NCBI RefSeq assembly: GCF_016806835.2
Contig: NZ_CP086111.1
Coordinates: forward strand, 3,111,001-3,175,000
Source: Skermanella rosea
GTDB lineage: Bacteria > Pseudomonadota > Alphaproteobacteria > Azospirillales > Azospirillaceae
Length of the DNA: 64,000 bases
Direction: 5' to 3'
Below the pieces are notes generated by a model. The model made no database searches and was not told the origin of the DNA. It saw only the letters and a list, made by a program, of their open reading frames with translations. Made by a program: the position numbers and the translations under genes. Positions 10,940 through 54,741 of this stretch are shown here, one piece after another (the stretch's first letter is position 1; the number at the start of each line of letters is the position of its first letter).

Positions 10940-12250
10940 CTAATACCTGTTAACCAGGTTCTCCAGATACTCCTGTCGGCCGGAACGGGGTTCCGGTTTC
11001 AGGTTCTGGTCGCGGGCCAGCTTGGCCAGATCGCCCAGCCCGACCCGGCCGTCCAGGATGTCGGTTCCCAACCCCTCGTTCCAGCCGGCATAGCGGTCCG
11101 CGACATGGGAGGCCAGCTTGCCCTCCAGGATCATCCGCTCCGCCATCAGCAGCCCGCGCGCCAGCGTGTCCATGCCGCCGATATGGGCGATGAACAGGTC
11201 CTCCGGGTCGATGGACTGCCGCCGCACCTTGGCGTCGAAGTTGAAGCCGCCGGTGGTCAGCCCGCCGGCCGACAGGACATGGTACAGGGCCAGCGCCGCC
11301 TCCCGGTCGTCGTTGGGAAACTGGTCGGTGTCCCAGCCGTTCTGCGGGTCGCCGCGGTTGATGTCGAAGCTGCCCATCAGGTCGTTGGCGATCGCGTAGA
11401 CGACCTCGTGCTCGAAGGAGTGGCCCGCCAGCGTCGCGTGGTTGACCTCCAGGTTCAGCTTGATCTCGTTCTCCAGCCCGTACTTCCGAAGAAAGGCGTG
11501 GACCGTCGCGGCGTCGTGGTCGTACTGGTGCTTGGTCGGCTCCATCGGCTTCGGCTCGATCAGGATCGTGCCCTTGAAGCCGATGCGGTGCTTGTGCTCG
11601 ACCACCAGGGACATGAACCGGCCGAGCTGGTCCAGCTCCCGCTTCATGTCGGTGTTGAGCAGCGTGTCGTACCCTTCCCGGCCGCCCCACAGCACATAGT
11701 TCTCGCCGCCCAGGCGGTGCGTCATCTCCAGCACGCGCGCGACCTGCGCCGCGGCGAAGGCGAAGACCTCCGGGTCGGGGTTGGTCGCCCCGCCGGCCAT
11801 GTAGCGCCGGTGCGAGAACAGGTTGGCGGTCCCCCACAGCAGCTTGACGCCGGTGCGGTCGATGCCGTCCCGTATCAGCTCCTCGATCCGGGCGAGGTTG
11901 GCGTCGCCCTCCGCGATGGTCTCCCCCAGCGGGGCCACATCGGCGTCGTGGAAGCAGAAGAACGGCACGCCCAGCTTCTCGAAGAACTCGAACGCAGCGT
12001 GGAGCTTCAGTTTGGCGTTCTCCATCGTGTCCGCCGCCTGCCAGGGGCGGTCGAAGGTCCCGGAGCCGAACATGTCCACGCCGGGCCAGCAGAAGCTATG
12101 CCACCAGCAGACCGCGACCCTCAGATGGTCCTCCATCCGCTTGCCCAGCACCATGCGGTCGGGTTCGTAGTGGCGGAACGCCAGGGGATCGTCGGATTCG
12201 GGTCCCTTGAAGGGGATGCGGCCGATCTTCTCGAAACAGGGCGCGGTCAT
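10940..12250 (-). CDS. xylA: Xylose isomerase
   Basis: Interconverts D-xylose and D-xylulose in the cytoplasm using two divalent metals. 436 residues, the normal class II length. Conserved blocks: catalytic histidine region [25 protein letters not shown], metal ligands in [19 protein letters not shown] and [20 protein letters not shown], and [13 protein letters not shown]. It lies 18 bp after a Gfo/Idh/MocA gene in the same direction. No xylulokinase gene is present nearby, so the xylulose produced must be phosphorylated by an enzyme encoded elsewhere. Confidence 0.97.
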
Positions 12251-45881: not shown

Positions 45882-45910
45882 TTTACAAAAATTGGATTAA
45901 ACCGTATTTT
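45882..45910 (+). promoter_or_regulatory. Candidate promoter of the cNMP-EAL/FecR/cyclase unit
   Basis: TTTACA (45882-45887), 17-bp spacer, TATTTT (45905-45910), in an AT-rich patch between divergent genes. The predicted start of transcription, about 45917, falls on the in-frame ATG at 45918. That supports the downstream TTG at 45966 (with GGAG 8 nt before it) as the real translation start. Confidence 0.5.
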
Positions 45911-45965
45911 CTCGAAAATGCTTTTTCCGGTTCGGCAGCCGGCGGTCCTCCGTGGAGACCCTCCC

Positions 45966-47162
45966 TTGATCCGCAAGACGTTTCGACCAGGTGCAACGAT
46001 CTTCTTCGAGGGACAGCCGGCCGACTGCGCCTATATCGTGGAGCGGGGACAGGTCGAGATCTGCGCCACCCGGGACCGGACCCACATCACGCTGGCGACG
46101 CTCGGCCGGGGCGAGATCTTCGGCGAGATGGCCGTACTGGACGACAGCGTCCGGTCGGCCGCGGCCCGGGCGATGGAGGAGACCGAGGTGCTGATCATCC
46201 GGCGTGATCAGCTGAAGCGGCGCATCCAGGAAGTGGAGCCGATCGTCGGGCAACTGCTCGGCAGCCTGATCAGCCGGTTCAGGCAGGCGCAGAGCGGCCT
46301 TCTCAACGACCTGCCAGGCCGAGACCGGGGGACGGCGAACCATCTGGTGGTATCGGCGCCCACCGGCGGCACCGAGCGCGGCGAATCGGCGCTCAACTGG
46401 ATACACCGCGAATACGATCTGGAACGCGGCCTCGGCGCCGGGGAGTTCGAACCGTTCTTCCAGCCGATCGTGACGATCGCGGACGGCGAACTCGCCGGGT
46501 TCGAGGCCCTGGCCCGCTGGCGTCATCCCGACCGCGGCCTGGTGCCGCCGTGCGAGTTCATCGACCTGGGCGAGAAGAGCGGCCTGATCCGGCACATCGA
46601 CTTGGTCATCATGGCGGATGCCTGCGCGCTGCTGCGCCGGACGGCCGGCGGCCGCCCCCTGCCCTTCCTGAGCGTCAACCTGTCGTCGCAGCATTTCACG
46701 GACATGGATGTGGTGACGGGCTTGGCGGAGCGGCTGGCGACGACCGGTTTCCCCGCCGAACGGCTGAAGGTCGAACTGACCGAGACGGCGCTGGTCCACG
46801 ATCCCCACCAGGCCTACGAGGTCATGTGCAGGATCAAGGACCTCGGCGTGACCCTGGCGCTCGACGATTTCGGGACCGGTTACTCCAGCCTTTCCTACCT
46901 GCACAAGTTCCCGTTCGACGTGCTCAAGATCGACCAGTCGTTCGTCCGGGCGCTGGGCGAAGAGGGACGCACCCATCACATCGTCGAAACCATCATCACC
47001 CTGGCCCGCCGCATGGGCATGGAGGTGGTGGCGGAGGGAGTCGAGACGGCCGACCTGATCCGGCCGCTTCGGGAACTGGGATGCACGTTCGGCCAGGGCT
47101 ATCATTACAGCCGGCCGGTCCCGGCGGACGTCATGGGCGGGATGCTCGACCAAAGGCGTTGA
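45966..47162 (+). CDS. Cyclic-nucleotide-binding domain plus EAL-domain c-di-GMP phosphodiesterase
   Basis: About 398 residues. The N-terminal cNMP-binding domain has FRPGATIFFEGQPADCAYIV and the phosphate-binding cassette FGEMAVLDDSVRSAAARA, with the E and R that contact cAMP or cGMP. The EAL domain follows from about residue 140: FFQPIVTIADGELAGFEALA, SVNLSSQHF, ELTETALV, LALDDFGTGYSSLSYL, LKIDQSFV, VVAEGVET and QGYHYSRP. All metal-binding and catalytic residues of active EAL enzymes appear present, and there is no GGDEF domain. A cyclic nucleotide could therefore gate c-di-GMP breakdown. The start is the TTG after GGAG; the ATG at 45918 is an alternative. Confidence 0.9.
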   Translation: MIRKTFRPGATIFFEGQPADCAYIVERGQVEICATRDRTHITLATLGRGEIFGEMAVLDDSVRSAAARAMEETEVLIIRRDQLKRRIQEVEPIVGQLLGSLISRFRQAQSGLLNDLPGRDRGTANHLVVSAPTGGTERGESALNWIHREYDLERGLGAGEFEPFFQPIVTIADGELAGFEALARWRHPDRGLVPPCEFIDLGEKSGLIRHIDLVIMADACALLRRTAGGRPLPFLSVNLSSQHFTDMDVVTGLAERLATTGFPAERLKVELTETALVHDPHQAYEVMCRIKDLGVTLALDDFGTGYSSLSYLHKFPFDVLKIDQSFVRALGEEGRTHHIVETIITLARRMGMEVVAEGVETADLIRPLRELGCTFGQGYHYSRPVPADVMGGMLDQRR

Positions 47163-47192
47163 TCGGGCATCCCGCCCATGACGTCCGCCGGG
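47120..47192. repeat. 26-bp perfect inverted repeat spanning the EAL-gene stop codon
   Basis: Bases 47120-47145 and 47167-47192 are exact reverse complements (26 of 26), with a 21-nt spacer that contains the TGA of the EAL gene. The left arm is coding sequence for the conserved-looking PADVMGGML; the right arm is non-coding. GGT/ACC outside the arms extend it past a one-base bulge. The RNA would fold into a very stable hairpin. There is no T-run, so a classical terminator is unlikely. Confidence 0.9.
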
Positions 47193-47288
47193 TACCCGAT
47201 TTGAACCCAGGCCCGTCCATAATTTCAGCGCGTCCCGCCGCCCGTTTCCAGGAAAATGCCTGGGCGGAACCAATGGGGAGGCTCGGAC

Positions 47289-47933
47289 ATGGGAATCGCT
47301 GGTAGGATTCCGCCGATGCTGCTGGCCGGCCTGATGATGGCCTCGTCGGCGTCGGCGGCGGACATGACGCCGGCCGACCGGGCGCCGGTCGGACGGGTGG
47401 TGCGACAGGAAGGCAGCACCGTGATCCTGCGCGACGACATCCGGTCCCCGTTGCTGATCGGCACCTCGGTCTTCACGTCGGACGTGATCGAGACAGGCTT
47501 CTCCTCCCGGGTCACGGTCCAGTTCAGAGACGGCAGCAGCCTTGTCACCGGGCCGGAAAGCCGCGTCCAGGTCTCGGACTACACGATCGATCCGCAGGGC
47601 GGGCGGACGTCGGCGCTCTTCTCCATGCTGTCCGGCATCGTCCGTGCCGTGGTCGGTCAAGCGGGGTTGGGCAGCTTCGCGGTGCAGACCGACACGGCGG
47701 TCGCGTCGGCCCGCTCGACCGAATGGACGGCGGAGATCACGCCGGCCGGCACCGCGGTGCTCGGCCTGGAGGGAGTGGTCGAGGTGCGCAGCCGTTCGAC
47801 TGGGGCGGCCGTCACCCTGGCGCCGTCCCAGGGGACCGACGTGGCGGCGGGACGTGATCCGACGCCGCCCGTCACCTGGGGAGCGCCCAGGGTGGACCGG
47901 ACCCTCCGCCTCGTCGGCCCGGCCAACCGTTGA
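47289..47933 (+). CDS. Secreted FecR-domain protein
   Basis: 214 residues with a signal peptide (MGIAGRIPPMLLAGLMMASS, cleavage after SASA). The FecR-like beta-domain has VGRVVRQEGSTVILRDD, LLIGTSVFTSDVIETGFSSR, VQFRDGSSLVTGPESRVQV and SALFSMLSGIVRAVVG, followed by AVASARSTEWTAEITPAGTA and a C-terminal beta segment. Such proteins occur in the periplasm beside CHASE2 cyclases, and this gene is followed 3 bp later by exactly such a cyclase. It is a plausible extracytoplasmic partner of the CHASE2 sensor. It is not a sigma-factor-linked FecR, as no ECF sigma gene is present. Confidence 0.87.
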   Translation: MGIAGRIPPMLLAGLMMASSASAADMTPADRAPVGRVVRQEGSTVILRDDIRSPLLIGTSVFTSDVIETGFSSRVTVQFRDGSSLVTGPESRVQVSDYTIDPQGGRTSALFSMLSGIVRAVVGQAGLGSFAVQTDTAVASARSTEWTAEITPAGTAVLGLEGVVEVRSRSTGAAVTLAPSQGTDVAAGRDPTPPVTWGAPRVDRTLRLVGPANR

Positions 47934-47936
47934 GCG

Positions 47937-50003
47937 ATGGGCAGGCGGAGTTCCTGGCTGCTGGCGGCGCTCGCCGTCCCGCTGGTCCTCGCCGGGCTCC
48001 GGCTCGCCGATGCCGAACCCGGATGGCTGCAAGGGCTTGAAGGCCGGAGCCTGACGCTGCGCTACGGGTTGCGCGGGCCGCTGAAGCCCTCGGGCACCGT
48101 GGCGCTGCTGATGATCGACGACAGGACGCTGGCGGAGCATGGCCGCTGGCCGCTGTCCCGGCGGCTGATCGCCGACGCCGTTCGCCGGCTGGCGGCGGAC
48201 GGCGCGCGCGTCGTCGCGATCGACCTGCTGTTTCCCGAACCCGAGGCGCCGCTGCCGGCCGAGGTCGCCGACATCCTGGACGACGCCCGCAGCCGGATGC
48301 CGCGGTCCGCGGACGGGCTGGCCGTCCGGATCGACCGACTGCTCGAAGCCGCCGACCCCGACGGTGCCCTGGCGGCCGCGCTGGGATCCACCGGGATCGG
48401 CGTGCTGGGCTTCGCCTTCGGCTTCGACCCGGACGGCACCGCACCGGCCGGCGGTGCGGTCCCCGACGCGCTTCGGAATGCCGCGTTCCGCGTGGTGCGG
48501 GAACCGGCGATCCCGGACCACCGCGACGACCATCCGGCATCGGTCGTCGTTCCGGTGCCCGTCCTGGCCCGGTCGGCGGCGCTCGGACACCTCACCGTGC
48601 GGATCGAGGCCGACGGCGTGCTGCGCCACGACCAGTCCGCGATCCGCTTCGGCGACGCCTGGTATCCGAGCTTGCCGGTCGAGGCCGTCCGGCGGTATCG
48701 CGGCCTGGATGCAGACGATGTGGCTCTCCATGTCGGGCACGGTATCCGGGTCGGACCGGACTTCGTCGCCACCGACCGCCGGATGAGGCTGCCGGTCAAC
48801 CATTACGGCCCGCGCGGGACCATCGAGACCCGCTCGCTGGCCGACCTGTTGGCCGGTCGAATCCCGCCGGGCAGCTATCGCGGGCGGATCGTGCTGATCG
48901 GCGCTTCCGCCCAAGGCGTCGGCGACAGCTTCCACACCCCGTTCGGCCGCGCGCTGCCGGGCGCCGAACATCTCGCCACGGTGATCGACAACCTGCTGAC
49001 CGGACGGACGCCGAAGGATCGATCCTCCCTGCTGCCGGCCGATATCGCCGCGATCCTGGGCGGCGGGCTGCTGGGAGCAGCGCTCGGGTCCGCTCTGGCG
49101 CCGGTCGCCGCGACGGCCGGCACGGCGATCCTGGTCGCCGGCTGGCTCGCCGCGACGGCGGTGCTGTTCGCCACGGCGGACCTGTGGCTAGCAGTGACCT
49201 CGCCGGTGCTGGCGGCGGGGCTTGGCTTCGCCCTGTTCGCCGCACGCCGCTCCCAGGTCGGCGAGCAGGCGCGGCGCCTGGCCGAGCGGCAGCGGCGCAA
49301 CCTGATGCGCTATTTTTCGCCGGCGGTCGCCGAACGGCTGATGAACAGCAACCGGCCCGGACTGGAGGACCGGATCCAGCCCGTGACCATCCTGTTCGTC
49401 GATCTGGTGGGGTTCACCGGGATCAACGAGCGCCTGTCGCCCCGTGAGGCGATGGACGTGCTGCGCGGATTCTACGGCCATGTCGAAGCGGCGGTGCTGG
49501 ACCGGGGCGGCGTGGTCGACAAGTTCCTGGGCGACGGCGCGATGGCCATATTCGGCATCCCCGAGCCGACACCCCACGACGCCGGGGACGCCCTGGCGGC
49601 GGCACGGCAGATCGCCGACGGTATGGAGGACTGGAACCGGGAGCTTGCGTCCGTGGGCCTGCCGGCGCTGACCGTCGCGATGGGGCTGCACCTGGGGCCG
49701 GTCCTGATCGGCGACACCGGCGGCACGAGGCAGTTCACCTTCACGATCATCGGCGACGCGGTGAATGTCGCGAGCCGCCTGGAAGCCCTGACCCGCGAAC
49801 TGGGCGTGACGATCGCGGCCTCCGACGCGGTGATCGAGGCGGCGCGCTCCACCGCCGGGAGCGCGGCGGTGGAGGGCTTCGTCGAACTGCCGCCCCGGCC
49901 GTTGCGCGGGCGGGAACGTCCGATCGGCGTCTGGAGCTGGCCGGCCCCGGTTGGAACGGCCGCGCCGCACGGCCTGTTATCGCCACCGGATCAGACCCGG
50001 TGA
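47937..50003 (+). CDS. CHASE2-domain adenylate/guanylate cyclase
   Basis: Class III nucleotide cyclase with a periplasmic sensor, 688 residues. An N-terminal helix (SWLLAALAVPLVLAGLRL) is followed by a CHASE2 domain: VALLMIDDRTLAEHGRWPLS, ARVVAIDLLFPEPEAP, NYHGP-like NHYGPRGTIETRSLADLLAG, and IVLIGASAQGVGDSFHTPF. Three helices span about residues 360-435. The cyclase domain from about 480 has both metal aspartates, in LFVDLVGFTGINERL and VVDKFLGDGAMAIFGIPEP, plus IIGDAVNVASRLEAL with the transition-state Asn and Arg. It should be active; ATP versus GTP specificity is not certain from sequence. Together with the upstream cNMP-EAL gene it could form a signal relay. Confidence 0.92.
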   Translation: MGRRSSWLLAALAVPLVLAGLRLADAEPGWLQGLEGRSLTLRYGLRGPLKPSGTVALLMIDDRTLAEHGRWPLSRRLIADAVRRLAADGARVVAIDLLFPEPEAPLPAEVADILDDARSRMPRSADGLAVRIDRLLEAADPDGALAAALGSTGIGVLGFAFGFDPDGTAPAGGAVPDALRNAAFRVVREPAIPDHRDDHPASVVVPVPVLARSAALGHLTVRIEADGVLRHDQSAIRFGDAWYPSLPVEAVRRYRGLDADDVALHVGHGIRVGPDFVATDRRMRLPVNHYGPRGTIETRSLADLLAGRIPPGSYRGRIVLIGASAQGVGDSFHTPFGRALPGAEHLATVIDNLLTGRTPKDRSSLLPADIAAILGGGLLGAALGSALAPVAATAGTAILVAGWLAATAVLFATADLWLAVTSPVLAAGLGFALFAARRSQVGEQARRLAERQRRNLMRYFSPAVAERLMNSNRPGLEDRIQPVTILFVDLVGFTGINERLSPREAMDVLRGFYGHVEAAVLDRGGVVDKFLGDGAMAIFGIPEPTPHDAGDALAAARQIADGMEDWNRELASVGLPALTVAMGLHLGPVLIGDTGGTRQFTFTIIGDAVNVASRLEALTRELGVTIAASDAVIEAARSTAGSAAVEGFVELPPRPLRGRERPIGVWSWPAPVGTAAPHGLLSPPDQTR

Positions 50004-50015
50004 AGGACAAGAAAG

Positions 50016-50561
50016 ATGACGGAAACCCTGCCCGGCGACATGCCGGACGATGTAGACCAGTGCGTCCAGCAGGTGCTGGAGACCGCCTGCCGCCAGGAGA
50101 TCATGATCGCCACGGCGGAAAGCTGCACCGGCGGCCTGCTCGCTTCCCTGCTGACCGACATCACCGGTTGCTCCCATGCCTTCGAACGCGGTTTCGTGAC
50201 TTATACCAACGACGCAAAGAACGAGATGCTGGGCGTTCCGCCGGCGCTCCTGGAAGATCCCGGCCCGGTGTCGGAAGAGGTCGCCCGCGCCATGGCGGAG
50301 GGTGCCATCGCCAATTCCCGCGCCCATCTCAGCATCTCCATCACGGGTTTCGCCGGCCCCGCCGGTCCGGACGACGAGCCCGGTCTCGTCCATTTCGCGA
50401 TGGCGCGCAAGGGACTTCCGACCCGGCACCGGGTGGAGCATTTCGGCGATCTCGGCCGCGGCGGGGTCCGCCTGGAATGCGTCCGCACCGCCCTGTCGAT
50501 GCTGCGCGCGGAACTGGAAGGCGTCGGCGGAACTCGGCAAACCGTGCCCCAGACCTCCTGA
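50016..50561 (+). CDS. pncC: Nicotinamide-nucleotide amidase (CinA C-terminal family)
   Basis: Hydrolyses NMN to nicotinate mononucleotide in the pyridine-nucleotide salvage cycle. 181 residues, a stand-alone CinA C-terminal domain. IMIATAESCTGGLLASLLTD contains the catalytic serine, GCSHAFERGFVTYTNDAKNE and LSISITGFAGPAGPDDEPGL the other active-site blocks. It begins 12 bp after the cyclase gene and may be cotranscribed with it, though no functional link is evident. Confidence 0.93.
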   Translation: MTETLPGDMPDDVDQCVQQVLETACRQEIMIATAESCTGGLLASLLTDITGCSHAFERGFVTYTNDAKNEMLGVPPALLEDPGPVSEEVARAMAEGAIANSRAHLSISITGFAGPAGPDDEPGLVHFAMARKGLPTRHRVEHFGDLGRGGVRLECVRTALSMLRAELEGVGGTRQTVPQTS

Positions 50562-50743: not shown

Positions 50744-52039
50744 ATGACAGTCTTTCGCAGGGCATCGTGCGCGGCGGTGCTGGCTCTCGCCTTCGGCATG
50801 TCCCAGCCGGCGCAGGCCCAGGAGACGTTCAAGGTCGGCATCGTCACCTTCCTGTCCGGTCAGGCGGCGGAGAGCTTCGGCGTTCCCGCCTGGAACGGCG
50901 GCAAGGTCGTGATCGAGGCGCTCAACAAGGGCGAGGCGCCAGCCCCTTACGACAAGGTCGGTTTCGGCGGCATGACCATCGAGACCGTCGTGGTCGACGA
51001 GGCCGGCGGCGCCACCAAGCAGGTGCAGGAGTTGCGCAACCTGTACCAGCGCGAGAACGTGGACGTGGTGATCGGCTATGTCAGCTCCGGCGACTGCCTC
51101 GCCGTGGCGCCCGCGGCGGAGGAACTGAAGCGGCTGCTGATCCTGTACGACTGCGGCACGCCCCGGATCTTCGAGGACGGCAAGTACGAATACGTGTTCC
51201 GCACCGCCTCCCACGCCACCATGGATAACGTGGCCCTGGCCCGGTACATGAAGACCCAAGGGGTTAAGGCGGGCACCGTCAGCGCGATCAACCAGGACTA
51301 TGCCTGGGGCCACGACTCCCGGAACGACTTCCTGGCCGCCATGGAGCAGCTCTATCCCGGCTTCAAGGCGGAGGCCGACCTGCTGCCGAAGTTCGGCGCC
51401 GGCCAGTACGGCACGGAGATCTCGGCCCTGGTCCGCCAGGGCTCGGACGTGGTCCATTCCAGCCTGTGGGGCGGCGACCTCCAGGCCTTCATCCTCCAGG
51501 CGGGCCCGCGCGGGCTGTTCAAGCGGAGCCAGGTGGTGCTGAGCGCCGCCGACCACGTGCTTCCCTCCCTGGGCGACAAGATGCCCGACGGTACGATCAT
51601 CGGCGCCCGCGGCGCCTATGGCCTGCTGGCCCCCAAGAGCGACCTGAACGACTGGTTCTGGAAGGTCTACCAGGACGCCTACGACGTCTATCCGGTCCAG
51701 GCCCCCTACCGCATGGTCCAGGCGATCCTGGGCCTGAAGGTCGCGGTCGAGAAGGCGATGGCCGAGAACGGCGGCACCAAGCCGACCAAGGAGCAGATCG
51801 CGGCGGCGCTGAAGGGCTCGGAGTGGCATTCCCCGGCCGGCACCATCCGCATGGCGCTGGGCGACGGGCACCAAGCGATCCAGCAGACCGCCATCGGCCG
51901 CACCCGCTTCGACGAGGGCCGCAAGATGGTCGTGCTGGACGACATCCAGAACTTCAAGGCCGAATGCGTCAACCCGCCCCCCGGCCAGAAGAGCATCGAG
52001 TGGATCAAGGCAGGCTTCCCCGGCGCGCAGTGCGACTGA
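50744..52039 (+). CDS. Branched-chain amino-acid-type ABC transporter substrate-binding protein
   Basis: Periplasmic Leu/Ile/Val-binding-type receptor, 431 residues. The signal peptide ends at QPAQAQ, followed by ETFKVGIVTFLSGQAAESFG, the type-I fold opening. VVDEAGGATKQVQELRNLYQ, VIGYVSSGDCLAVAPAAEEL and VSAINQDYAWGHDSRNDFLA are typical of the Peripla_BP_6 group that often binds organic acids or aromatics rather than amino acids. It has a strong ribosome-binding site (GAGGGAGGAAACGG). It is the first gene of a five-gene transporter unit that ends with an acyl-CoA synthetase. Confidence 0.92.
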   Translation: MTVFRRASCAAVLALAFGMSQPAQAQETFKVGIVTFLSGQAAESFGVPAWNGGKVVIEALNKGEAPAPYDKVGFGGMTIETVVVDEAGGATKQVQELRNLYQRENVDVVIGYVSSGDCLAVAPAAEELKRLLILYDCGTPRIFEDGKYEYVFRTASHATMDNVALARYMKTQGVKAGTVSAINQDYAWGHDSRNDFLAAMEQLYPGFKAEADLLPKFGAGQYGTEISALVRQGSDVVHSSLWGGDLQAFILQAGPRGLFKRSQVVLSAADHVLPSLGDKMPDGTIIGARGAYGLLAPKSDLNDWFWKVYQDAYDVYPVQAPYRMVQAILGLKVAVEKAMAENGGTKPTKEQIAAALKGSEWHSPAGTIRMALGDGHQAIQQTAIGRTRFDEGRKMVVLDDIQNFKAECVNPPPGQKSIEWIKAGFPGAQCD

Positions 52040-52065
52040 CGCCGCGCAGCTGAAGGCGCCTTCCC

Positions 52066-52962
52066 ATGGATCTCGCACTGACCATTCTCCTGGATGGGCT
52101 GATCTACGCCTCGTGGCTCTTCATCGTGGCGCTCGGCCTGACGCTGGTATTCGGCGTCCTCAAGATCCTCAACATCGCCCATGGCAGTCTCTACGCCATC
52201 GGCGCCTACGCGGCGGCCAGCTTCGTGGCGTTCTTCGCGTCGCTCGGGCTGGCGCCGGAATGGTCGCTGGTCGCCATGCTTCTGGCGGCCGTCGCGGTCG
52301 CGGTCGTCGTCGGCCCGCTCCTGGAGCGGGGCCTGCTGCGGCTGTTCTACGGCCGGGACGAGGTGCTGCTGGTGCTGGTCACCTACGCCCTGTTCCTGAT
52401 GCTGGAGGACGTCACCAAGCTGATCTGGGGGGTCAACCCCTACTACGTCTCCGAGCCCTACACCCTGTTCGGCGATGTGGAGTTCGGCTCGCTGTTCTAT
52501 GTCGGCTACGACCTGATGATGATCGTCCTGGCCGTGGTCTGCGGCCTGGGCGTCTGGTTCGGCCTGAACCGAACGGTGACCGGCAAGATCGTGCTGGCCG
52601 TGATCCACAACGAGGAAGTCAGCGCCAGCATGGGGGTGAACGTCAACCGCGTCTATGTCGCGGCCTTCACCGTCGGCGTCTTCCTGGCGGCGCTGGGCGG
52701 AGCCTTCACGGCGCCGATGATCTCGGTCCAGCCGGGGCTCAGCGTGGGCGTGATCATCCTGAGCTTCGCCGTCGTGATCATCGGCGGGCTGGGCAGCATC
52801 GAGGGGGCGGCGATCGGCGCCGTGGTGGTCGGCCTCGCCCGCGCGGCAGCGGTCCACCTGATGCCCGACGCGGAGCTTTTCAGCATCTACATCGTCATGG
52901 CGGCTGTCCTGATCTTCCGACCGGAAGGCCTGTTCCAGCGCGTCTCCGCCCGCAAGATCTGA
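52066..52962 (+). CDS. livH: Branched-chain amino-acid-type ABC transporter permease (LivH-like)
   Basis: Inner-membrane permease, 298 residues with about eight hydrophobic helices. ILLDGLIYASWLFIVALGLT followed by LVFGVLKILNIAHGSLYAIG is the family opening. SASMGVNVNRVYVAAFTVGV and ALGGAFTAPMISVQPGLSVG contain the EAA-like cytoplasmic loop region. It lies 26 bp after the binding-protein gene and 22 bp before livM. The name marks the family; the substrate is not necessarily a branched-chain amino acid. Confidence 0.93.
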   Translation: MDLALTILLDGLIYASWLFIVALGLTLVFGVLKILNIAHGSLYAIGAYAAASFVAFFASLGLAPEWSLVAMLLAAVAVAVVVGPLLERGLLRLFYGRDEVLLVLVTYALFLMLEDVTKLIWGVNPYYVSEPYTLFGDVEFGSLFYVGYDLMMIVLAVVCGLGVWFGLNRTVTGKIVLAVIHNEEVSASMGVNVNRVYVAAFTVGVFLAALGGAFTAPMISVQPGLSVGVIILSFAVVIIGGLGSIEGAAIGAVVVGLARAAAVHLMPDAELFSIYIVMAAVLIFRPEGLFQRVSARKI

Positions 52963-52984
52963 CCGGCGGGAGCCCCTTTCCGAT

Positions 52985-53992
52985 ATGAGTGACATGACGC
53001 GCCGACCCTTTCTTCCGGCAGCCCTGGCAACATCCGCGACCGTCGCGGCGCTGCTCGCGGCCGGACTTCTCATGCCGCGCTGGCTCCTTTTCCTGGGGAC
53101 CATCGCCGCCTCCTACGGCATCGTGACGCTCGGCATCGTGCTGCTGATGCGGAGCGGCGTCGTGTCGTTCGGCCAGGGACTGGTCTATGCGGCCGGCGGC
53201 TATGTCGCCGGCCTCGCCCATACCCGGCTCGGCATCACCGACGCCGTCCTGCTGATGCTGGTCGGCGGAACGGCGGCGGCGCTGGCCGGCGCCGTGGTCG
53301 GGCCGCTGCTCGCCCGCTACCGGGGCATCTTCTTCTCCATGCTGACCCTGGCGCTCTCCATGGTGCTCTACGGCGCCCTGGTGAAGTCGCCCGCGATCGG
53401 CGGATCGGACGGCTTCAATGTCGGGCGGCCGACGATGCTGGGCTGGACGCCGCCGGACGCCTATGCGGACTATTCCATCTACGCGCTGGCGATGGTCGTG
53501 ACCGGCATCTTGGCCTTCCTCGCCACGGTCTATTTCCGCTCGGCCCGGGGGCTGGTGTCGCTGGCGATCCGCGACAACGACCTGCGGGTGGAATATCTGG
53601 GCGCGTCCGTCCAGGCGGCCATCGCGGTCAACTTCACCCTGGCCGCGGCGCTGGGCGGGATCGGCGGCGCGTTGACGGTGATGGCGCTCGGCCACATCGA
53701 TCCGAACTTCGCCTATTGGACCACGTCGGGCGAGTTCGTCTTCGTGGCGATCCTGAGCGGTCACCATGGGGTGGTCGCGGTGTTCATCGCCTCCGTCCTG
53801 CTGGAACTGGTCCGGTCCTTTTCCAGCCTGTACTTCCCGCACATGTGGCAGTTCTCCCTGGGCCTTTTCCTGCTGCTGGTGATCCTGTTCCTGCCGCGCG
53901 GCATCGGCTCGCTGTGGTCCAAGCGGGCCGCGACGGCGGGACGGAGCCGCGCGCCTGCCGTCCGGTCCGCCCGCGGGGAGGCCGTGCCATGA
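52985..53992 (+). CDS. livM: Branched-chain amino-acid-type ABC transporter permease (LivM-like)
   Basis: Second inner-membrane permease, 335 residues. ASYGIVTLGIVLLMRSGVVS, FGQGLVYAAGGYVAG and GIFFSMLTLALSMVLYGAL match LivM, and SLAIRDNDLRVEYLGASVQA is the conserved cytoplasmic loop that contacts the ATPases. The last residues form a basic, non-conserved tail (SKRAATAGRSRAPAVRSARG). Its TGA overlaps the livG ATG by 4 bp. Confidence 0.93.
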   Translation: MSDMTRRPFLPAALATSATVAALLAAGLLMPRWLLFLGTIAASYGIVTLGIVLLMRSGVVSFGQGLVYAAGGYVAGLAHTRLGITDAVLLMLVGGTAAALAGAVVGPLLARYRGIFFSMLTLALSMVLYGALVKSPAIGGSDGFNVGRPTMLGWTPPDAYADYSIYALAMVVTGILAFLATVYFRSARGLVSLAIRDNDLRVEYLGASVQAAIAVNFTLAAALGGIGGALTVMALGHIDPNFAYWTTSGEFVFVAILSGHHGVVAVFIASVLLELVRSFSSLYFPHMWQFSLGLFLLLVILFLPRGIGSLWSKRAATAGRSRAPAVRSARGEAVP

Positions 53993-54741
53993 CCTCGGTC
54001 CTGTCCGCCCATGATCTGGGCAAAAGCTTCGGTGCCGTCGTGGCCGCGTCGGGACTGTCGATGGAGGTCCCCGCCGGCCAGCGGGTCAGCCTGATCGGCA
54101 GCAACGGTGCGGGAAAGACAACATTCGTCAACATGGTGACCGGGTACCTGAAGCCGGACAGCGGGCGAATCCTGCTGGAGGGCCGCGACATCACCGCCCT
54201 GGCGCCCCGGCGGATCAGCCGCATGGGAGTCAGCCGGTCGTTCCAGATTCCGCAGCTCTGCATCGAGTTGACCGCGCTGGAGAACATGCTGGTGGCTCTC
54301 GCCGCCTCCGATCCGGGCGGCCGCCTGTCGTTCTGGAAACCCGCCCATGCCGACGACCAGCGGATCCGGGCGGAGGAACTGCTCGACCGCTTCGGCCTCG
54401 CCGAATACGCCGACCGGCCGGTTTCCGAACTGGCCGGCGGCGTGCGCAAGCTGCTGGACATCGCCATGGCCCTGACCGGCCGCCCGCGCCTGCTGCTGCT
54501 GGACGAACCGACCAGCGGCGTCAGCGCGGAGGAGAAATTCCCGATGATGGAGACGGTGATGGGGGCGCTGGCCCGCGAATCCGTCACCGTCCTGTTCGTG
54601 GAGCACGACATGGATATCGTGACCCGGTACGCCGACCGCGTGGTCGCCTTCTTCAACGGCCGCATCATCGCCGACGACCCGCCCGACCGGGTGCTGGACG
54701 ATCCCGAGGTGCAGCGGTACGTCACGGGGACCGCCCGGTGA
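53989..54741 (+). CDS. livG: Branched-chain amino-acid-type ABC transporter ATPase (LivG-like)
   Basis: ATP-binding subunit, 250 residues. Walker A SLIGSNGAGKTTFVNMVTGY, FQIPQLCIELTALENMLVAL (Q-loop region), Walker B LLLLDEPTSGVSAEEK and switch histidine in LFVEHDMDIVTRYADRVVAF. The signature loop reads ELAGGVRKLLDIAMAL, a departure from LSGGQ but in the range seen for LivG. It overlaps livM and livF by 4 bp each, so the three are translated together. Confidence 0.94.
   Translation: MTSVLSAHDLGKSFGAVVAASGLSMEVPAGQRVSLIGSNGAGKTTFVNMVTGYLKPDSGRILLEGRDITALAPRRISRMGVSRSFQIPQLCIELTALENMLVALAASDPGGRLSFWKPAHADDQRIRAEELLDRFGLAEYADRPVSELAGGVRKLLDIAMALTGRPRLLLLDEPTSGVSAEEKFPMMETVMGALARESVTVLFVEHDMDIVTRYADRVVAFFNGRIIADDPPDRVLDDPEVQRYVTGTAR

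What the first reader, a model, noticed from the sequence alone, without database searches (positions are those of the whole stretch)
45882..50003. Possible cAMP/cGMP-to-c-di-GMP relay encoded as one three-gene unit
Seen: a cNMP-binding domain fused to an apparently active EAL phosphodiesterase, then a secreted FecR-domain protein, then a CHASE2 class III cyclase with all catalytic residues, on one strand. The last two are 3 bp apart. Known: CHASE2 is an extracytoplasmic sensor; cNMP domains bind cAMP or cGMP; EAL domains degrade c-di-GMP. Inference: an outside signal, perhaps via the FecR protein, drives the cyclase, and its product switches the EAL enzyme. Encoding producer, receiver and effector together would make a self-contained cross-talk module.
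Basis: partly seen in the sequence, partly recalled or inferred. Interest (0 to 1): 0.7.

Follow-up and report, generated by a model that had tools for sequence, protein, structure and literature searches.

The report
cAMP-to-c-di-GMP relay genes, inversion-joined
Three signalling genes that could pass a signal from outside the cell, through cAMP, to the biofilm messenger c-di-GMP lie side by side here only because a chromosome inversion recently joined them, yet the same set of genes is a conserved cluster, often with a protein-export system, in a distant order of bacteria.

Summary
The three genes are real and look catalytically intact: a cNMP-EAL phosphodiesterase of the Bd1971 type, a small exported FecR protein, and a CHASE2 class III cyclase predicted to make cAMP. 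In this genus (Skermanella) they are not a unit. In all four congeners the EAL gene and the FecR-cyclase pair are apart: over 1 Mb in two genomes, on different contigs in the other two. A single inversion of about 1.18 Mb, private to the window genome, made the adjacency; both junctions were found, and a new 26-bp inverted repeat marks the one in the window. The genome has 17 class III cyclase matches, so a closed circuit is unlikely here. The wider idea holds elsewhere. In an unnamed alphaproteobacterial order, 32 of 34 sampled genomes carry cNMP-EAL next to a CHASE2 cyclase, in about half with a FecR surface protein between; the cyclase is often the last gene of a type I secretion operon. 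In 21 of these genomes it is the only class III cyclase, and always linked. None of 20 control EAL loci was linked. Each part has a characterised relative; the combination was not found in the library searched. Verdict: partly supported; new variant of a known kind.

The parts
45918..47162 (+). cNMP-EAL phosphodiesterase gene, 414 aa (start possibly TTG at 45966); Bd1971-type
   Evidence: Pfam; best PDB match Bd1971 by sequence profile and by fold; residues
45975..46229 (+). cyclic-nucleotide-binding domain; phosphate-binding cassette at residues 68-81 (46119-46160)
46416..47117 (+). EAL phosphodiesterase domain, all catalytic residues present
47120..47145 (+). left arm of a 26-bp perfect inverted repeat (3' end of the EAL gene)
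47167..47192 (+). right arm of the inverted repeat: an inverted copy of the EAL 3' end, absent from G001/G002; lies on the inversion junction
   Evidence: RNA fold z = -6.9 for 47110-47260
47153..47192 (.). inversion breakpoint: synteny with the EAL locus of relatives ends here and synteny with their FecR-cyclase locus begins at 47188-47191
   Evidence: reciprocal junction in L176
47289..47933 (+). exported FecR-domain protein (214 aa; 225 aa if started at 47256), signal-peptide-like N-terminus
   Evidence: FecR domain; start conserved; signal peptide read by eye only
47937..50003 (+). CHASE2 class III nucleotidyl cyclase, 688 aa, predicted adenylate cyclase (K529, T603)
47985..49079 (+). CHASE2 sensor domain
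49371..49823 (+). class III cyclase catalytic domain

Best explanation
The window joins two separate signalling units of Skermanella. Unit 1 is a cNMP-EAL enzyme of the Bd1971 kind: a soluble dimer that binds cAMP (or cGMP) through its N-terminal domain, which switches the EAL domain on to hydrolyse c-di-GMP. Unit 2 is a two-gene envelope sensor: the exported FecR protein and the CHASE2 receptor-cyclase, which makes cAMP when an envelope or outside signal is sensed. The link between them is the diffusible cAMP pool, so they need not be adjacent, and in the rest of the genus they are not. A single inversion of about 1.18 Mb in this lineage cut between EAL and an HD-GYP gene and between a histidine kinase and FecR, placing EAL in front of FecR. 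In a distant alphaproteobacterial order the same parts do form a conserved unit, usually with type I secretion genes and often with a large FecR surface protein. Shown here: domains, residues, the inversion with both junctions, and the conserved linkage elsewhere. Inferred: cAMP as product and ligand, activation of the EAL domain, the role of FecR, and any physiological link between the two units in Skermanella.
For: Domains and residues. Profile search of PDB: Bd1971 first, E 3e-132, full length, next hit 2e-95 covering EAL only; the AlphaFold model gives Bd1971 as its first six fold hits. Biochemistry of Bd1971 (PMC6717892). EAL and cyclase orthologues present but apart in G001-G004. Synteny breaks at 47153-47192. 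The reciprocal junction HD-GYP|HK lies at L176 near 11826-11911. HD-GYP is at C1:1.976 Mb in the window genome. Elsewhere: linkage in 32 of 34 sampled genomes of one order, in two genomes of another family, 0 of 20 controls. EAL and cyclase trees place the Skermanella proteins outside the linked clades.
Against: No biochemical or expression data exist for these Skermanella genes. The cyclase's second specificity residue is Thr, so product identity is predicted, not shown. With 17 class III cyclase matches and 29 cNMP-domain matches in the genome, nothing ties this cyclase to this EAL enzyme. The inversion rests on one assembly of the window genome; reads were not available.
Confidence: 0.65

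Rival explanations
1. One reading: EAL, FecR and cyclase are one co-transcribed, self-contained relay in this genome.
For: Same strand, EAL-FecR gap about 126 bp, FecR-cyclase gap 3 bp. The same partners are conserved neighbours in a distant order and in another family, so the chance adjacency may have been kept by selection.
Against: Adjacency absent in all four congeners and made by an inversion. A strong 26-bp hairpin sits between EAL and FecR, and sequence upstream of FecR conserved with G001/G002 may carry its own promoter. 17 class III cyclase matches in the genome. EAL and cyclase belong to clades that are unlinked elsewhere.
Confidence: 0.12
2. The two units are unrelated neighbours: the EAL enzyme answers to cAMP or cGMP from other cyclases, and the FecR-CHASE2 cyclase serves other cAMP receptors such as CRP-type regulators.
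For: Units apart in relatives; many other cyclases and cNMP proteins in the genome; in three of the four congeners the EAL gene is next to an HD-GYP gene instead.
Against: The same pair of protein kinds is linked in other lineages with cyclases of different clades, which argues for a functional affinity between them.
Confidence: 0.2
3. The junction is an assembly artefact; the true window genome has the ancestral arrangement.
For: Only one assembly; a short inverted repeat lies on the junction.
Against: Both reciprocal junctions are present and coherent, a search with the junction repeat found no second copy in the genome, and another congener (G002) has its own different rearrangement upstream of FecR, so this spot is prone to breakage.
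Confidence: 0.05

Closest known systems
Bd1971 of Bdellovibrio bacteriovorus (PMC6717892)
   Same: cNMP-hinge-C-helix-linker-EAL order over the full length; cassette FGEMALIDNQNRSA against FGEMAVLDDSVRSA; Arg108 equivalent R120; EAL catalytic residues
   Different: About 33% identical; activity not tested here. The paper names candidate cyclases for Bd1971 but does not assign one, whereas related genes in the order found here have one next to them
Xanthomonas XC_0250 / XC_0249 (PMC3770947)
   Same: Class III cyclase gene linked to a cNMP-domain c-di-GMP enzyme; conserved as adjacent genes in xanthomonads
   Different: The receiver makes c-di-GMP (GGDEF) and prefers cGMP; here the receiver should destroy c-di-GMP (EAL) and the cyclase is a CHASE2 receptor predicted to make cAMP
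Sinorhizobium meliloti CyaD1 (CHASE2) with the nearby FecR-domain protein SMc02177 (PMC5498481)
   Same: CHASE2 adenylate cyclase with a FecR-domain gene in the same neighbourhood
   Different: Output is the regulator Clr; SMc02177 was not needed for sensing the plant signal, which weakens a sensor role for FecR there
Campylobacterota CHASE2-cyclase clusters (PMC9239204)
   Same: CHASE2 adenylate cyclase clustered with a FecR-domain outer-membrane protein
   Different: The phosphodiesterase there is described as hydrolysing cAMP, not as a cNMP-controlled c-di-GMP enzyme

Membership tests
Bd1971-type cNMP-controlled EAL phosphodiesterase | cNMP domain, C-helix, flexible stretch, linker helix, EAL in one chain | tested here: met
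Bd1971-type cNMP-controlled EAL phosphodiesterase | Intact phosphate-binding cassette and C-helix Arg | tested here: met
   G69, E70, R79, S80, R120
Bd1971-type cNMP-controlled EAL phosphodiesterase | All EAL catalytic residues | tested here: met
   invariant in 72 of 72 sequences
Bd1971-type cNMP-controlled EAL phosphodiesterase | c-di-GMP hydrolysis stimulated by cAMP or cGMP | not testable with these tools
   needs assay
CHASE2 class III adenylate cyclase | CHASE2 domain followed by class III catalytic domain | tested here: met
CHASE2 class III adenylate cyclase | Two metal Asp, transition-state Asn/Arg, Lys for adenine | tested here: met
   D489, D533, N610, R614, K529 in 36 of 36
CHASE2 class III adenylate cyclase | Makes cAMP rather than cGMP | not testable with these tools
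   T603 (S in most relatives) with K529 suggests adenylate; assay needed
Conserved cyclase-receiver gene unit (XC_0250/XC_0249 kind) | Adjacency conserved in close relatives | tested here: not met
   G001-G004
T1SS-linked cNMP-EAL/CHASE2 cluster (order of G350) | Cyclase downstream of OEP-ABC-HlyD genes | tested here: not met
   no match to those proteins in the window

The most novel reading that the evidence does not exclude
In the order of G350 a CHASE2 adenylate cyclase, often the only class III cyclase in the genome, is built into a type I secretion operon and paired with a Bd1971-type phosphodiesterase and often a FecR surface protein. It would form a near-closed circuit in which an envelope signal raises cAMP, cAMP switches on local c-di-GMP breakdown, and this sets export or retention of the surface adhesin: a Lap-like control run by cAMP. 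The window's inversion would be an accidental reassembly of such a circuit.
Probability: 0.3. Interest if true: 0.75.

Novelty: new variant of a known kind. Interest (0 to 1): 0.58.

Why it matters
Direct cAMP control of a c-di-GMP phosphodiesterase is known biochemically from Bd1971, but the cyclase that feeds it was not assigned there. A lineage in which the only class III cyclase lies beside such an enzyme, type I secretion genes and often an adhesin-like protein would make signal, producer, receiver and output testable together. The window case is also a caution: same-strand neighbours with plausible logic can be the product of one recent inversion.

Tried and rejected
Co-occurrence by a named-genome scan found full-length relatives only in Skermanella stibiiresistens and S. 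aerolata; the other hits matched the EAL part. Plasmid search: 7 of the 5000 listed records covered 80% or more of the query, none followed up. The idea that Skermanella inherited the linked module was rejected: EAL and cyclase both fall outside the linked clades and EAL-HD-GYP is the arrangement in three of four congeners. GC skew across the inverted segment was too noisy to decide anything. No tRNA lies in the window to explain the breakpoint. Sigma-70-type and terminator scans: two weak promoter-like sites before EAL, no terminator with a T-run between EAL and FecR. Literature searches for CHASE2 with EAL and cyclic nucleotide-binding gave no paper, and a 2024 review of cAMP and c-di-GMP does not mention Bdellovibrio, CHASE2 or cNMP.

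Full report
Observation. The three genes are present as described: cNMP-EAL 45918-47162, FecR 47256-47933 (start probably 47289), CHASE2-cyclase 47937-50003, followed by a CinA-domain gene at 50016. Catalytic and ligand-binding residues are intact. By sequence profile and by fold the nearest solved structure to the whole cNMP-EAL protein is Bd1971. The model has high confidence within both domains and low confidence in residues 1-16 and 133-153, so the relative placement of the domains is not claimed.

The adjacency is young. Four congeners have orthologues of both the EAL protein (96, 93, 83, 73% identical) and the cyclase (95, 85, 71, 65%), but far apart: about 1.03 Mb in G002, 1.11 Mb in G001, and on different contigs in G004 and G003. 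DNA alignment shows left synteny ending at 47153-47192 and right synteny starting at 47188-47191. In G001, G002 and G003 the EAL gene is followed by a converging HD-GYP gene. In G001, G003 and G004 a histidine kinase precedes FecR. In the window genome the HD-GYP gene is at C1:1,975,985-1,977,825 and is joined to that same histidine kinase (L176). These are the two products of one inversion of about 1.18 Mb. The window junction carries a 26-bp perfect inverted repeat (47120-47145 and 47167-47192) whose second arm is an inverted copy of the EAL end and is missing in G001 and G002. The FecR-cyclase pair itself is conserved in all five species.

The same partners are a conserved unit elsewhere. 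A search of 385 alphaproteobacterial genomes gave full-length cNMP-EAL relatives. Of 27 loci fetched, six had a class III cyclase within 5 kb, in several orientations, some with FecR: G113 and G227 (FecR and EAL on one strand, CHASE2-cyclase divergent), G350 and G269 (convergent), G219 (a cyclase without CHASE2), G120 (4.8 kb away). In the order of G350, 101 of 142 genomes have a match to the cNMP-EAL profile at E 1e-108 or better, nearly all full length. Of 39 loci examined from 34 genomes, 31 showed a cyclase in the fetched stretch, and one more (L226) lies about 6 kb away by coordinates. By genome this is 32 of 34; for one of them (G828) the linked copy is judged from coordinates alone, and the exceptions are G788 and G921. 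Five of the seven unlinked loci are second copies in genomes whose other copy is linked. The EAL and CHASE2-cyclase genes are always convergent there, and where FecR is present it lies between them on the EAL strand. None of 20 EAL loci without a cNMP domain had a cyclase, CHASE2 or FecR gene within about 5 kb. The controls came from other alphaproteobacterial genomes, not from that order. The loci were chosen for contig length, not at random, and genomes within the order share descent, so the counts are not independent.

In 21 of the 34 genomes only one class III cyclase is found, and in all 21 it is the linked one. By contrast the window genome has 17 such matches, and 29 cNMP-domain matches. 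The genomes in the order also have other cNMP-domain proteins (two to seven matches per genome in all), so the cAMP there may have further receivers. In L171 and L173 the cyclase is the last gene of an OEP-ABC-HlyD set, and ABC and/or HlyD relatives lie directly upstream of the cyclase in thirteen or more further loci. The FecR proteins there are about 700 to 1600 aa and several carry FG-GAP, cadherin, RTX or weak BapA-prefix matches, which suggests surface adhesins.

Trees (quick method, SH-aLRT only) place the Skermanella EAL protein with unlinked relatives and the Skermanella cyclase next to another unlinked, FecR-adjacent cyclase. The linked cyclases of the order form one clade (98), and those of G113/G227 fall elsewhere. 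So the pairing probably arose more than once, and the window's is an independent, recent case.

Mechanism. Most likely the EAL enzyme is activated by cAMP as Bd1971 is, and the FecR-CHASE2 pair is an envelope sensor that makes cAMP. FecR next to CHASE2 recurs: before CHASE2-PAS-GGDEF-EAL proteins in G011 and G013, beside a second CHASE2 cyclase in the window genome as a FecR-TPR-TonB-barrel protein, in Campylobacterota (PMC9239204) and near CyaD1 in S. meliloti (PMC5498481). That it senses is inferred; SMc02177 was not required for sensing the plant signal.

Known or new. Each step has a characterised relative. The combination of CHASE2 cyclase, cNMP-EAL and type I secretion genes was not found in the papers searched; the library holds open-licence papers only, so absence there is weak evidence of novelty.

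Noticed in passing
L171:2130-9268; L173:10604-17738; L208-L213, L216, L222, L238, L240, L241: CHASE2 cyclase directly downstream of type I secretion genes (OEP, ABC with C39-like domain, HlyD) in the order of G350.
   Followed up: partly
window 47120-47192: 26-bp perfect inverted repeat on the inversion junction, its second arm new relative to G001/G002; how it formed is unexplained.
   Followed up: partly
L268:3-3119 (G000 C1:966500-978500): A 1039-aa FecR-TPR-TonB-barrel protein beside another CHASE2 cyclase of the genome, like the Campylobacterota clusters.
   Followed up: partly
L040, L041: FecR gene directly upstream of a CHASE2-PAS-GGDEF-EAL protein in G011 and G013.
   Followed up: partly
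L104, end of the EAL gene (query positions 1853-1900): A dispersed repeat of about 48 bp with some 20 or more copies in the window genome lies between EAL and HD-GYP in G002.
   Followed up: no
L105 upstream of 12941: G002 has a different gene set upstream of FecR, so this interval was broken a second time independently.
   Followed up: partly
window 50744-54741: Substrate-binding protein, two permeases and an ATPase resembling a branched-chain amino acid ABC transporter, read from ORF translations only.
   Followed up: no
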